Assembly: GCA_026770575.1 (NCBI GenBank)
Contig: MU657173.1
Location: 414,767-478,766, forward strand
Source of the DNA: Pelagophyceae sp. CCMP2097
Taxonomy: Eukaryota > Sar > Pelagophyceae
Direction: 5' to 3'
Length of the DNA stretch: 64,000 bases
Part shown: piece by piece, positions 19,562 through 51,397 of the stretch
How the letters are laid out: each line of letters begins with the position of its first letter
How positions within the stretch are numbered: position 1 is the stretch's first letter
The notes under the pieces: generated by a model
Databases searched by the model: none
The model's input: only the letters and a program-made list of their open reading frames with translations
What the model was told of the DNA's origin: nothing
Translations under genes and position numbers: made by a program

Positions 19562-20556
19562 NNNNNNNNNNNNNNNNNNNNNNNNNNNNNNNNNNNNNNN
19601 NNNNNNNNNNNNNNNNNNNNNNNNNNNNNNNNNNNNNNNNNNNNNNNNNNNNNNNNNNNNNNNNNNNNNNNNNNNNNNNNNNNNNNNNNNNNNNNNNNNN
19701 NNNNNNNNNNNNNNNNNNNNNNNNNNNNNNNNNNNNNNNNNNNNNNNNNNNNNNNNNNNNNNNNNNNNNNNNNNNNNNNNNNNNNNNNNNNNNNNNNNNN
19801 NNNNNNNNNNNNNNNNNNNNNNNNNNNNNNNNNNNNNNNNNNNNNNNNNNNNNNNNNNNNNNNNNNNNNNNNNNNNNNNNNNNNNNNNNNNNNNNNNNNN
19901 NNNNNNNNNNNNNNNNNNNNNNNNNNNNNNNNNNNNNNNNNNNNNNNNNNNNNNNNNNNNNNNNNNNNNNNNNNNNNNNNNNNNNNNNNNNNNNNNNNNN
20001 NNNNNNNNNNNNNNNNNNNNNNNNNNNNNNNNNNNNNNNNNNNNNNNNNNNNNNNNNNNNNNNNNNNNNNNNNNNNNNNNNNNNNNNNNNNNNNNNNNNN
20101 NNNNNNNNNNNNNNNNNNNNNNNNNNNNNNNNNNNNNNNNNNNNNNNNNNNNNNNNNNNNNNNNNNNNNNNNNNNNNNNNNNNNNNNNNNNNNNNNNNNN
20201 NNNNNNNNNNNNNNNNNNNNNNNNNNNNNNNNNNNNNNNNNNNNNNNNNNNNNNNNNNNNNNNNNNNNNNNNNNNNNNNNNNNNNNNNNNNNNNNNNNNN
20301 NNNNNNNNNNNNNNNNNNNNNNNNNNNNNNNNNNNNNNNNNNNNNNNNNNNNNNNNNNNNNNNNNNNNNNNNNNNNNNNNNNNNNNNNNNNNNNNNNNNN
20401 NNNNNNNNNNNNNNNNNNNNNNNNNNNNNNNNNNNNNNNNNNNNNNNNNNNNNNNNNNNNNNNNNNNNNNNNNNNNNNNNNNNNNNNNNNNNNNNNNNNN
20501 NNNNNNNNNNNNNNNNNNNNNNNNNNNNNNNNNNNNNNNNNNNNNNNNNNNNNNNN
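19562..20556. other. Assembly gap (995 N)
   Basis: Unresolved bases. Frames running through this stretch have no biological meaning. Confidence 1.
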
Positions 20557-46498: not shown

Positions 46499-47854
46499 AT
46501 GCTCGTGGGCTTGGTCTTGCTGGTCGGCGGCGCGAGCGGCCTCGCCGCGCAGGGTTTCGGCAAGGCGCCGGCCAAGGCCAAGGGCAAGAAGGCTCCCGTC
46601 GAAGCCGCGGGCGCCGGCGACCCTACTGCTAAGTGGGCGGCGTGCCAGGCCTGGGCGGCGCGCCACGGCGCGGCGCTCGACGGCGTGCGCCTCGACGTGT
46701 CGGCCGCGCGCGGCGTCGACGTCGTCGCGGAGCGCGCGTTTGCAAAAGGTGACCGTATCTTCGGCGTGCCGTCGGCGCTGGCTCTCGCCCTCGTCGACCC
46801 GGAAAAGGCCACGGCCACCGTCGACGTCGTCGACGCGGGCGCGAACTTCATCGACTGGTACGGCGCCAACGCAAAGCCGTTCTTCGCGCCGTACTTGGCG
46901 ACGTTGGCAGGTGCGGTCCCTTGCGTATGAATTGAGCAGTCCGACGTTGGAAACACAGGCGCGGGCTGTCCGACGCCCGACGCCTGGGGCGCGGACGCTG
47001 TGGCGGCGGCGGAGTGGCCGCCGCTCGAGGCGGTGGCGACGGCGCGTCGGCTGCGCGTCCGCGAAGTCTCGACGGAACGGGGCCTCGACTTTGCCGCGCT
47101 CCACGAGGCCGCGTTCATCGCGTCGTCGCGCTCCATCACCATCAAGATGGACGGCTCGACGGCGGCCATCGACGCCGAAGACGAAGACGACGACGCCGCG
47201 GCGGACGTGGGCGTGAAGAGCGGCCCCACGGTTGCCGTGTCCGCGGCCAAGCCGACGCGGGAGATCCGCGCTCTGGTGCCCATGTTCGACGCTTTGAACT
47301 GGTCGCCGAAGCCGAATTCGCGCGTGGAGATTGTCGATGGAGACAAGGACGAATCGACGTTCGCATTGTTCGCGCGGCGGCGCATCGAGGCCGGCGAGCC
47401 TTTGACCATCTCCTACGGCTCGTCGGCGTCGTCGCCGGACTTGTTGATGAATTACGGCTTTGTGCCGCCGGCGTTCCTCGACGGCTCGGGCAACGCCGAC
47501 GCGCGACTTGCTGAGATTCAACAGAAAGAGTGGTCCACGACTGCTTCCCAAGACCGCTTGTTGATCCAGGACGTCTCGACGCCGCAGGCGCTCCGTGAGG
47601 CCACGCGCCTCAAGCTCGCCCTCCGCTCCGTCGCGTCGAACAAGGCGCACGAGACTCTCTTCAAGTCCATCGCCGCCTTTGACCTCGGTCCGTCCCACGA
47701 AGAGCGGCCTCCCACGTTGCCAAGCGTCTCACGCTATGCCCGACTAGGCATCTCCGTGTCAAAGGCCAAGGCGGGCCCTCTGCCGCCGGGCCTGGAGCGC
47801 AACCGCGTCTCCTCGGGCCGGGGCAAAGGAGGCGGCGCCTACCAGGCCGGTTGA
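46499..47854 (+). CDS. SET-domain protein lysine methyltransferase, probably plastid-targeted
   Basis: Exons 46499-46910 and 46959-47854 (intron GTGCGG...ACAG, 48 nt, phase 1), 435 aa. Leader MLVGLVLLVGGASGLAAQGF resembles a heterokont plastid presequence with Phe after the signal peptide. The SET domain is of the Rubisco LSMT/SETD3 class: AARHGAALDGVRL, RGVDVVAERAFAKGDRIFGVP, then after an acidic insert ALVPMFDALNWSPKPNSRVE and AGEPLTISYGSS...LLMNYGFVP. The substrate is unknown; family members methylate plastid proteins, histones or actin. The usual Asn-His of the SET core reads NW here, as a local variant of the D-(M/L)-x-N-H motif, so activity needs testing. Confidence 0.82.
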
Positions 47855-47964: not shown

Positions 47965-48000
47965 GGGCACTTTTGGCAACTTGCTGCTTGGTCGGTTCTT

Positions 48001-48102
48001 GGCTACAAGCGTCGGTCTAGAAGCGTCGGTTCTTGGCTACAAGCGTCGGTCTACAAGCGTCGGTTCTTGGCTACAAGCGTCGGTCTAGAAGCGTCGGTTC
48101 TT
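48001..48102. repeat. Three tandem copies of a 34-bp unit overlapping the msrA 3' end
   Basis: Units at 48001-48034, 48035-48068 and 48069-48102, beginning GGCTACAAGCGTCGG. The third unit contains the msrA stop codon (48087-48085), so the last codons of the gene have been duplicated into the 3' untranslated region. Confidence 0.9.
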
Positions 48103-48662
48103 GGCCACGTAGTTTTGGTGGTACTCTTCGGCCTCGTAGAACGTGCAAAGAGGCTCGACGGCCGTGTTCTTGAAGAGTGCGTGTTTGTCCATCTGCTGGA
48201 GGCGCATGGCCGTCGCTTCTCGGAGCTGATCCTCACCTTGAACAAAAACAGCGGACCGGTACTGCCTCCTTGCAGCGCCGGGCGTGTGCATGGCCCAGAA
48301 CTTTTTCAGTAAAGTTTCATAGGTAATAACAGCGGAGTCGAATTCGATTGCGATGGCTTCGGTGTGATCGCCAATCACCTTGTAAGAGGGATCGGCCGTC
48401 GACCCGCCGCAGTACCCGACGACCGTGTTCTTCACGCCCGCCGTCGCGCCGAACGCGACCTGCGGCTGCCAGAATCATCCGAGGGCGAGGACGGCCACGG
48501 TGGAACCAGTGGGGAACGTGTAGGCAGGGCATAACCTAGTGGGCATTACGTCGCCGTGGGCATTGCGTCGGCGACGCCATGCAAGTCAGAGCGGACGCAC
48601 GGCTTCGTCGGCTGCAGCGCCGCCGCGCCGGCCGCGAACATCACCAGAGTCAGGTGCAACAT
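48085..48662 (-). CDS. msrA: Peptide methionine sulfoxide reductase A, selenocysteine form
   Basis: Exons 48662-48601 and 48535-48085, intron GTGCGT...CTAG (65 nt, phase 2), 170 residues if one TGA is decoded. The MsrA active-site motif GCFW reads G-(TGA)-F-W: the TGA at 48477-48475 is exactly at the catalytic Cys, flanked by VLALG and FWQPQVAFG. The rest is MsrA: VVGYCGGSTADPSYKVIGDHTEA, FWAMHTPGAARRQYRSAVF and EEYHQNY. An opal codon at only this position, with an otherwise intact frame, indicates selenocysteine insertion, known for MsrA in some algae. The leader MLHLTLVMFAAGAAALQP suggests secretion or organelle targeting. It repairs methionine-S-sulfoxide. Divergent from the PncC-NudC gene, with 79 bp between the start codons. 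Confidence 0.88.
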
Positions 48663-48741: not shown

Positions 48742-50462
48742 ATGGCTCTGGCAAAGGGATTCGAGCGCGTCGTCGGCGCCCTTGTTCGGCGAAAGGCAAA
48801 TCTGACCGTCGTCGAGTCGTGCTGCGGCGGACTTATCAATGCCTCGATCATTGCCGTCCCGGGGTGCTCCGCCGTCTACCACGGAGGTGCGCCTCGCGCC
48901 GTATACCACGGCGGCAATTTTTATCCGTGGCACTGCGTCCGACGTTGTCGCTGGCAGGCTCGGTCGTCTACAGCACGGCCAAGGCGCGGCACCTGCTGCC
49001 GAGCGACGCTGTCTACAAGTCGCTCTCGGCGCCGACGTCCGAGGTGCCGGGCGAGACGGAGGCGGACCGCTACGTCCGCGGCAAGCGGGAGTGGGCCGCG
49101 AAAGCGGCGACGGCGTTTTGCGAGGCGCAGGGCACGGACTACGCCCTTGCTGAGAGCGGCGCGTCCGGACCAACGTTCCGGCCTGCGGGCTTAGTCGCCG
49201 GGTTCACAGCGCTCGCGGTGGCGCAGCGGTGCAAGGTTTCGGGGGACGTCAAAGTGGTGGCTGAAGAAGTGGTAAAGTCCGACGGCGCGGACCGTGAAGC
49301 GAACATGAGACTCTTCACCAAACGCGCGGGCAGGCTCCTCGCCACAACGCACAAGGCAGCGTCTTTGCGACATCTCTCGATGAGAGACCATCGAATCGTA
49401 GGCTTGGCGAGGAATTGGGCCCGGACGAGGACAGGCGCGCTTCGCTGCCACCTGCCATCGACCGAATGTCGCACCTGCGCGAGGATGCTCAGGAGGTGGC
49501 CGTGCTCCGGTCGTCGTCCGCGGCGCGCTTCGTCGTCGTCCAGCAACGGAAGATCCTGATCGAGCCGCCGGGCGACCTGGCGAAACTGACACGCGGCGAC
49601 GCCGAAAAACGGTTCGGGCCGATCGACGACGCCCGCACAACGTTTTTGGGCGTCGACGACCAAGGCAAGGCCGTCTTCACCGTCGAGGCTGTCGCGGCGG
49701 CGGCGGGCCTCGTCGACGCAAGGGTGCACGCTCCGCTCCTCGCGACGCAGGCGGCGCGCGACGTATCGCTCTACGCGACGGCGCTCGCGGCCTGGCAGGC
49801 TCGGTCCGCGTTTTGTTCGGCCTGCGGCACGGCCGCGCCGCTGACGCATTCGGGGCATGCGCGGACGTGCGGCCAGTGCAAGTCCGTGGTTTTCCCAAGA
49901 CAGGACCCAGCCGTAATCATGCTCGTGGCGAGCCGCTGCGGCGGATATGCGCTGCTGGCGAGGTCGCCGAGGCACCCGCCAAAGGTGCACACGACGCTCG
50001 CGGGCTTCGTCGAGGCCGGCGAGTCGTTTGAGGCGGCTGTTCGGCGCGAGGTTTTAGAGGAGACGGGAGTAATCGTCGACGACGTCGCCTACCGCGCCTC
50101 GCAGCCCTGGCGAGTTTTTTGTTTTTTCCCCCGTACCGACCGTGCAATCTCGGGCGACTGCAGCCTATATTGTTTTCTATCGGGCGCCCCACACGCTTAC
50201 CCGCAGGCCCTTCCCTCAGTCTACCATGATCGGTTTCGCTGCGACTGCTGACATGACGCAGCCCCTCGTCATCGACGCAAACGAACTCGTCTCCGCAGAG
50301 TGGTTCTCAAAGGCGCAAGTGCGCGACGCCGTCGCCGTCTCCCACTCCATGGACGCCGCCTTTGCCGCCGAGACGCTCGAGAAGCACCCGACGCTCGCGC
50401 TCCTCGTGCCCCCGCGCGGCGTCATCGCCCGAGACCTCATCGAAGACTGGCTCCGGGCCTAG
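48742..50462 (+). CDS. PncC (CinA C-domain)-NudC fusion: NMN deamidase plus NADH pyrophosphatase
   Basis: Exons 48742-48886, 48958-49360, 49402-50109, 50207-50462; 503 aa, phases all consistent. The N-terminal domain is CinA/PncC: LTVVESCCGGLINASI, PGCSAVYHGGSVVYSTAK (completed across intron 1) and ESGASGPTF. A 41-nt intron (GTCTTT...GTAG, phase 2) joins it in frame to NudC. NudC shows AIDRMSHLREDAQ, zinc ribbon CSACG...CGQC, VFPRQDPAVI, the Nudix box GFVEAGESFEAAVRREVLEE and, after a GC-AG intron (GCGAGT), SQPWPFP, the hallmark of NADH pyrophosphatases. No ATG precedes the conserved IDR motif in the NudC frame, so a separate NudC would be truncated. NudC cleaves NAD(H) to NMN(H) and AMP; PncC converts NMN to NaMN. 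Confidence 0.85.
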
Positions 50463-50546: not shown

Positions 50547-51239
50547 TCACTGGTTTTCGCGCTCGTAGAGGTCCTTGAGTAAGAGAAATGCCTCTTTCCG
50601 CAGCACGAGGTCGGGGGCGTCGGCTCGGACCTTGTCCGGGTGCAGCGCCTTGGCCGCGTGGAGATAAGCCAGGCGCACTTTACCCGGAACGAGGGGTTGG
50701 ACCACGGCGGGCGTGCCTGGTATCAGCCTCGGCAAATCAATGAGGAGTTGCCCGAGTGTCCGGCCGCGGCCCCACGCGACGACGCGCTGCGAGACGTCGT
50801 CTATCAGCCACCACGCGCGCGGCGGCGCCTTTGGAGCGGCCTGGGCGCAGGCCCGGCCGCGCGCCGTCGGCGGCGCGCCCCAGCCCCGTGCCGCGTGCTG
50901 CGGCGGCGCCTTGCCGCGCGGGAAGGCGCGGGCGCTGGCATAAGCGCCCGCGTTGGCGGCGGGCGCGGCGAGGAGGGCCCGCGCCTCGTCGACGATTGTG
51001 CGCGAGGCAGCGGGAGTCGACTGCGTGCACACTTTGCGGCTCAGCAAGTCGCGGAGGTCCGCAAACGCCAAAGTGGACTTGCGAAGCGCCAGCCTCGCGC
51101 GCGCCCGCCGCAGCAAAGCGCGCAGGTAGCCCGGGTCCAGCTCCAAAGCGCGCGTGCACAGCGCCTCGGCGTGCCGCACGTCCGCGTCGGCGCCGAGCAT
51201 CATAAACCTACGTCGTTCAAGGCGCTCCCCCGCCGCCAT
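50547..51239 (-). CDS. TPR plus auxilin-like J-domain protein
   Basis: Single exon from ATG at 51239 (MAAGERLERRRFMMLG), 230 aa; a longer frame begins only with GTG. An N-terminal TPR-like helical pair (HAEALCTRALELDPGYLRALLRRARARLA) is followed by an Ala/Pro-rich linker and a C-terminal auxilin-type J domain: GRTLGQLLIDLPRLIPG, KVRLAYLHAAKALHPDK with HPD, and EAFLLLKDLYEREN. It is a paralogue of the 32989-33597 gene. Likely an Hsp70 co-chaperone, possibly in clathrin uncoating. It is tail-to-tail with the PncC-NudC gene, 84 bp apart. Confidence 0.8.
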   Translation of the reverse strand: MAAGERLERRRFMMLGADADVRHAEALCTRALELDPGYLRALLRRARARLALRKSTLAFADLRDLLSRKVCTQSTPAASRTIVDEARALLAAPAANAGAYASARAFPRGKAPPQHAARGWGAPPTARGRACAQAAPKAPPRAWWLIDDVSQRVVAWGRGRTLGQLLIDLPRLIPGTPAVVQPLVPGKVRLAYLHAAKALHPDKVRADAPDLVLRKEAFLLLKDLYERENQ

Positions 51240-51397
51240 TTTGGGTTTTCCGCCGACGCGGGCGCGCACGCGGCGGCTGCGTTGGTCCACTCCACGGCCG
51301 CTGCGGCTGAATTCAGCGACGTCGCCGCCTGCTCAAACCTAAGCGGAGGGCATCACAACCGGCGTCTCTCGGGGGCGCCCCTTTTGACAAAATTCGC

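What the first reader, a model, noticed from the sequence alone, without database searches (positions are those of the whole stretch)
48742..50462. PncC-NudC fusion: a possible single-chain NAD recycling enzyme
Splice- and phase-consistent exons place a CinA-type NMN deamidase directly in frame before a full NudC NADH pyrophosphatase. The product of NudC (NMN) is the substrate of PncC, so the fusion would channel NAD breakdown to NaMN without releasing NMN. I know both families as separate proteins and do not recall this fusion described. The linking intron is 41 nt (GTCTTT...GTAG), and the NudC frame has no upstream ATG that keeps its conserved IDR motif.
Basis: partly seen in the sequence, partly recalled or inferred. 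Interest (0 to 1): 0.87.

Follow-up and report, generated by a model that had tools for sequence, protein, structure and literature searches.

The report
CinA–NudC fusion gene of ochrophyte algae
An algal gene appears to join a CinA-type (NMN-deamidase-like) domain to an NAD-cutting NudC enzyme in one protein; the same fusion occurs in diatoms and related algae, but whether its first half still deamidates NMN is in doubt.

Summary
Of the 120 best-listed protein matches, 117 carry both halves in one chain, 116 in the order CinA then NudC. Named hosts include diatoms, Triparma, Chrysophaeum and Aureococcus.

Both keep the frame (499 or 503 aa). The shared acceptor is strong and NudC-frame coding signal starts before its first ATG.

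Against it: P0001, the one transcript product of this species found, is a 299-aa NudC-only ORF, just what a retained linking intron would give.

The NudC half keeps its catalytic motifs. The CinA half departs from proven NMN deamidases: the Lys-301 position is Arg in the window, and the Thr-340 position is Gly in 99 of 116 aligned fusions (Ser in the window). NAD cleavage is well supported by family; NMN-to-NaMN conversion is plausible, not shown; channelling has no support. The papers searched do not describe the fusion.

The parts
48742..48886 (+). exon 1: start codon and N-terminal part of the CinA domain (ESCCGG, VPGCS)
   Evidence: PF02464 41.4 bits on this exon; codon score best in this frame
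48887..48957 (+). intron 1, GT-AG, 71 nt
   Evidence: splice score 12.3; one of 8 frame-keeping pairs listed, chosen because it restores the conserved GGSVVYST stretch
   Evidence: PF02464 24.2 bits on this exon; codon score best in this frame
49349..49401 (+). linking intron, inferred: GC-AG, 53 nt; alternative 49361-49401 (GT-AG, 41 nt)
   Evidence: scores 12.0 against 9.4, acceptor strong; contradicted by transcript product P0001
49402..50109 (+). exon 3: linker, NudC N-part, zinc ribbon, Nudix box; NudC-only ORF would start at the ATG at 49466
   Evidence: NUDIX 56.1 bits; identical to P0001 from 49466 on
50110..50206 (+). intron 3, GC-AG, 97 nt
   Evidence: removed exactly so in P0001; splice score 11.4; no other copy found in the genome
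50207..50462 (+). exon 4: PFPQS motif to the stop codon
   Evidence: NAD(+) diphosphatase model covers it; present in P0001

Best explanation
A gene found once in this genome encodes one chain: an N-terminal CinA/PncC-fold domain, a flexible linker, and a complete NudC-type NAD(H) diphosphatase. Shown: the two domains, their order, recurrence of the fusion in other ochrophytes, and the intact Nudix box, zinc-ribbon Cys and SQPWPFP motif. Inferred: a short intron (53 nt more likely than 41) is spliced so that this alga also makes the fused chain. Inferred: NudC cuts NAD(H), or NAD caps on RNA, into AMP and NMN(H), and the CinA half, which keeps the phosphate-site Gly, Ser and Tyr, binds the released mononucleotide. 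Deamidation of NMN to NaMN, which could re-enter NAD through the NAD synthetase of this genome, is the single most likely reaction, at a little under even odds, because catalytic positions have changed. Tethering raises local concentration at most; no channel is supported.
Against: P0001 is NudC-only and labelled complete. Lys-301 position is Arg in the window; Thr-340 position is Gly in 99 of 116 aligned fusions, Ser in the window. The NCBIfam PncC domain model scores 31.4, below its cut-off of 68.9. Neighbours of the nearest bacterial relatives are not NAD genes in the ten ORFs scanned.
Confidence: 0.5

Rival explanations
1. The fusion is real, but the CinA half is not an NMN deamidase: it has a changed active site and acts on another nucleotide, or only binds one.
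For: Thr-340 position lost in 110 of 116 aligned fusions (Gly 99, Ala 11), Lys-301 position Lys in 82 of 112, S31 Ser in 73 of 102; new near-fixed residues (Glu in 114 of 116, GPTF, RxxNM). Fungal CinA with similar losses is treated as inactive in PMC3855486 (sections 16-17).
Against: Phosphate-site Gly, Ser and Tyr are kept in every aligned row; most fusions have a Lys at or next to the expected place; the window keeps Ser at S31 and at Thr-340. The NudC partner makes NMN.
Confidence: 0.35
2. In this species the ancestral fusion is split or switchable: the linking segment stays in the mRNA, NudC is translated alone from the ATG at 49466, and the CinA frame runs on to the stop at 49560-49562 (248 aa).
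For: P0001 is exactly this NudC ORF, with intron 3 spliced.
Against: The NudC frame has coding signal before 49466 (+6.3) and the conserved IDR lies upstream of the ATG; the CinA frame after 49361 scores -11.7, as low in 46 of 1131 coding windows; strong acceptor at 49401; no read-through CinA ORF of this species found.
Confidence: 0.15
3. There is no intron; a one-base assembly error between 49298 and 49401 breaks a frame that is continuous in the living alga.
For: Both frames are open there, and linkers of up to 49 residues occur in relatives.
Against: P0001, a product of transcript data, also lacks the joined frame; the splice signals fit an intron.
Confidence: 0.05

Closest known systems
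Ochrophyte proteins in databases named NAD(+) diphosphatase (for example P0036 Fistulifera, P0023 Triparma, P0071 Chrysophaeum, P0108 Aureococcus)
   Same: Same two domains in the same order, 41-49 percent identical over nearly the whole length for most listed rows
   Different: No linking intron is needed in these protein records; most have Gly, not Ser, at the Thr-340 position
Bacterial CinA: COG1058-PncC two-domain enzyme (TtCinA)
   Same: A pyrophosphatase joined to a PncC-fold domain in one chain (PMC4246079, PMC3680494: passages and abstract)
   Different: There the pyrophosphatase is COG1058 and acts on ADP-ribose; here it is an unrelated Nudix NAD(H) diphosphatase, placed after the CinA domain
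Stand-alone NudC / NUDT12 / Npy1 NAD(H) diphosphatases
   Same: Nudix box, zinc ribbon, SQPWPFP motif
   Different: No CinA domain; the survey PMC6856373 tells of 21 architectures and its main text holds no PF02464, competence or deamidase and no CinA (listing); I saw part of its table only
Bacterial stand-alone CinA subfamily with ESSAGG, YT..GR and REANM
   Same: Nearest stand-alone relatives, 33-41 percent identical over about 65-75 percent of the 248-aa query; shared Glu, GA.GP and RxxNM
   Different: Thr kept (85 of 87), Arg for Lys (86 of 87), no NudC
Fungal CinA lineage 2.2.3.4 of PMC3855486
   Same: Eukaryotic CinA that keeps Tyr but not the Lys (paper)
   Different: No NudC half described there; S31 is Ala in them, Ser in the window; no fungal sequence was compared here

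Membership tests
NudC-type NAD(H) diphosphatase | NAD(+) diphosphatase model over cut-off | tested here: met
   210.3 bits, cut-off 158
NudC-type NAD(H) diphosphatase | Nudix box GX5EX7REUXEEXGU and SQPWPFPxS | tested here: met
   All present in the window; Nudix residues kept in 111 to 118 of 118 rows
NudC-type NAD(H) diphosphatase | Zinc ribbon with four Cys | tested here: met
   Four Cys in the window; the Pfam ribbon model is just under its cut-off, 21.9 against 24.8
NudC-type NAD(H) diphosphatase | Hydrolysis of NAD(H) to NMN(H) and AMP | not testable with these tools
   Needs an assay
PncC NMN deamidase (CinA C-terminal family) | PF02464 match and CinA fold | tested here: met
   68.6 bits, cut-off 23.5; fold matched for relative P0009, not for the window protein itself
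PncC NMN deamidase (CinA C-terminal family) | NCBIfam PncC domain model over cut-off | tested here: not met
   31.4 bits, cut-off 68.9; P0009 42.3 and P0002 40.2 also below
PncC NMN deamidase (CinA C-terminal family) | S31, G46, S48, Y58 (2A9S numbering) | tested here: met
   All four in the window; S31 is Ser in 73 of 102 aligned fusions
PncC NMN deamidase (CinA C-terminal family) | Catalytic Lys (K63 / Tt Lys-301) | tested here: not met
   Arg in the window with a one-residue longer loop and a Lys two places before; Lys in 82 of 112 aligned fusions
PncC NMN deamidase (CinA C-terminal family) | Thr or Ser at 105 / Tt Thr-340 | tested here: met
   Ser in the window; but Gly in 99, Ala in 11 of 116 aligned fusions
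PncC NMN deamidase (CinA C-terminal family) | Phosphate Arg (R145 / Tt Arg-377) | tested here: inconclusive
   RxxNM in place of RxxVR: first Arg kept in 117 of 117, last replaced by Met; which Arg is R145 was not settled
PncC NMN deamidase (CinA C-terminal family) | NMN to NaMN activity | not testable with these tools
   Needs an assay
Ochrophyte CinA-NudC fusion | Both halves in one mature mRNA frame in this species | tested here: inconclusive
   Splice and codon signals for, transcript product P0001 against

The most novel reading that the evidence does not exclude
Ochrophytes carry an ancient bifunctional NAD-turnover enzyme whose CinA half has moved to a new active site (near-fixed Glu, GPTF, RxxNM; catalytic Thr lost in most) and works on a NudC product other than NMN, for example NMNH or a damaged nicotinamide nucleotide, with retention of a short intron switching between fused and NudC-only forms in this species.
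Probability: 0.15. Interest if true: 0.72.

Novelty: new variant of a known kind. Interest (0 to 1): 0.5.

Why it matters
If right, diatoms and their kin carry a CinA-type step physically tied to NAD breakdown. In the paper on NMN deamidases read here (PMC3855486, sections 16-17), eukaryotic members are called a few curious exceptions, mostly fungal, and look inactive. A purified diatom fusion would tell directly whether these algae recycle NAD through NMN deamidation or have turned CinA to another use. It would also complete annotations that, in the named rows, mostly mention the NudC half alone.

Tried and rejected
Chance joining of two genes: rejected, since both halves in this order recur in 116 of the 120 listed matches. 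Intron 3 as a repeated introner: no other copy found. Alternative linking introns: the 12 best frame-keeping pairs were listed; a 32-nt pair at 49324-49355 scored 9.7 but is shorter than any of the 54 trained introns. A transcript ORF of the CinA half: a 248-aa query (candidates 136-434 aa by the tool's length rule) and a 150-aa query found none of this species, which does not prove absence. NAD genes beside the bacterial relatives: ten neighbour ORFs at six of the 80 loci scanned, none of NAD metabolism, one without any family. Lack of other deamidation routes: not so; 11 isochorismatase-family matches (exon pieces counted apart) and one NAPRTase match are present. Species or class: the quick tree is rooted on a long NudC-only row, has long branches, and puts the window at forks of SH-aLRT 84-88, so class is not settled. 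Literature: eight searches; two searches found no paper with all their terms; searches gave nothing that I used.

Rows dropped before counts: one search left out P0001, P0118 and P0120 of the 120 and, from the bacterial set, P0121 and P0122 of the 89; gaps were set aside in residue counts; the window is counted among the fusions. The misses are P0001, P0118 and P0120; the one row out of order was not followed up. In one search one of 55 pairs gave no candidate, and weak or exon-skipping pairs were kept in training.

Full report
Where it is. The gene is on the + strand, 48742-50462. CinA (PF02464) matches were found only here in that genome, on two neighbouring exons, and a search with the fused protein found no second copy. 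The only N run in the window is 19562-20556, far away.

Gene model. Exon 1 48742-48886 and exon 2 48958-49348 (or 49360) make the CinA half; exon 3 49402-50109 and exon 4 50207-50462 make NudC. On the spliced chain CinA scores 68.6 bits and NUDIX 63.1, and the NAD(+) diphosphatase model 210.3, over its cut-off of 158. Intron 3 is GC-AG and is spliced as modelled in P0001, a 299-aa transcript product identical to the window protein.

The linking intron. I trained donor and acceptor matrices on 54 introns inferred from split kinesin and kinase domain matches of the same genome (55 adjacent pairs, one without a candidate). Boundaries were inferred, not taken from RNA, and weak pairs were kept. 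Lengths run from 44 to 225 nt; acceptors favour TAG|G; about a fifth of donors are GC. At the link the acceptor at 49401 is strong. Both keep the frame, giving 499 or 503 aa. The best pair is reached by 13 of 2000 dinucleotide shuffles and 17 of 503 coding windows.

Codon signal. A codon score trained on the kinesin reading frames follows the model: CinA frames in exons 1 and 2, no positive frame in 49349-49401, and the NudC frame at +6.3 over 49402-49462, before its first ATG at 49466. In a held-out check with 28 frames, +6.3 is reached by 127 of 2504 off-frame and 654 of 1252 in-frame windows. The silence inside the putative intron is weak evidence alone, since 195 of 1252 coding windows score as low. 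The CinA frame read on past 49361 scores -11.7, as low in 46 of 1131 coding windows (these last windows were not held out).

Evidence against splicing. P0001 begins at the 49466 ATG and is labelled complete. The unspliced DNA gives just this ORF: TGA at 49295-49297, no ATG between. That a 5'-open ORF would have been labelled partial rests on my recall of the prediction program. Two searches for the read-through CinA ORF found nothing of this species. So a transcript seems to keep the linking segment, or that transcript is otherwise odd. I weigh this as intron retention, at about four to one for a spliced fused form existing; that is a judgement.

The family. The 503-aa query gave 5855 matches at E <= 0.001 among the 7996 candidates scored; only the best 120 are listed. 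Of these, 117 hold both halves, 116 in the order CinA then NudC, 98 with long matches to both. P0001, P0118 and P0120 lack a CinA match; P0118 by eye starts within the end of a CinA domain. Named hosts include Nitzschia, Mayamaea, Cylindrotheca, Fistulifera, Seminavis, Amphora, Corethron, Cyclotella, Triparma, Chrysophaeum and Aureococcus. Nine rows carry an MMETSP source; eight of them are fused ORFs. Weaker matches were not seen, so the fusion may reach beyond ochrophytes. A quick tree rooted on P0120 puts the window on a long branch outside the Aureococcus/Triparma, Chrysophaeum and diatom groups.

NudC half. The Nudix box, four zinc-ribbon Cys and SQPWPFPxS are present in the window; over the 118 rows the Nudix residues are kept in 111 to 118. 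The best solved relatives are a mycobacterial NudC and NUDT12. Cleavage of NAD(H), or of NAD caps on RNA (recalled for NudC and NUDT12), is well founded by family, though untested. A truffle enzyme of this family is almost tenfold more efficient with NADH (passage of PMC6856373), and NADH yields NMNH, which is not the known PncC substrate.

CinA half. Measured against passages of PMC4246079 and sections 16-17 of PMC3855486: the phosphate-site Gly, Ser and Tyr are kept in every aligned fusion; S31 is Ser in the window and in 73 of 102; the Lys-301 position is Arg in the window and Lys in 82 of 112; the Thr-340 position is Ser in the window, and Gly in 99, Ala in 11, Ser in 5 and Thr in 1 of 116. 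The fusions share with a bacterial stand-alone subfamily a Glu before the Thr position (114 of 116 and 87 of 87), GA.GP and RxxNM. That subfamily keeps Thr (85 of 87) but has Arg for Lys (86 of 87). Among the 80 loci kept of 398 confirmed it occurs in Betaproteobacteria, Rokubacteria, Chloroflexi and others. Ten neighbouring ORFs at six of these loci hold no NAD gene. The NCBIfam PncC model stays below its cut-off for the window and for two relatives, but is passed by one bacterial member. So the CinA half is conserved but has drifted from proven NMN deamidases; I give deamidation a little under even odds.

Pathway. The genome holds one NAD synthetase match, one NAPRTase match and 11 isochorismatase-family matches. 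NaMN, if made, could be turned into NAD; other routes may exist too.

Novelty. The architecture exists in databases, where named rows mostly read NAD(+) diphosphatase; five of the 120 rows carry a JGI label naming both NudC and PncC. In print I found nothing in searches, nor in find-passages of two surveys: PMC6856373, which reports 21 NADH-diphosphatase architectures, holds no competence, PF02464 or deamidase in its main text, and PMC5389931 no CinA. I saw only part of the architecture table. Most subscription papers and all supplements were out of reach. PMC6856373 does list one isochorismatase-NUDIX fungal fusion, another hydrolase family joined to the same enzyme type.

Verdict.

Noticed in passing
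47991-48105: Tandem array of a 34-base unit, 3.4 copies, 97 percent match, between a SET-domain gene and a methionine sulfoxide reductase frame; it overlaps the last codons of that reductase frame (48085-48474, minus strand; PF01625 107.1 bits).
   Followed up: partly
46931-47854, 50547-51332: Neighbours: SET domain on the + strand (26.3 bits); a minus-strand frame that by eye ends like a J-domain (HPDK), with no Pfam match at E <= 0.001.
   Followed up: partly
P0123-P0209 and loci L076-L155: A bacterial CinA subfamily with Arg in place of the catalytic Lys (86 of 87 aligned), some rows named PncC family amidohydrolase or nicotinamide-nucleotide amidase; these names may not fit its activity.
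   Followed up: partly
own-genome loci L037-L075: Splice signals of this genome look unusual: about a fifth of inferred donors are GC, the donor often reads GTGCG, and the acceptor favours TAG followed by G.
   Followed up: partly
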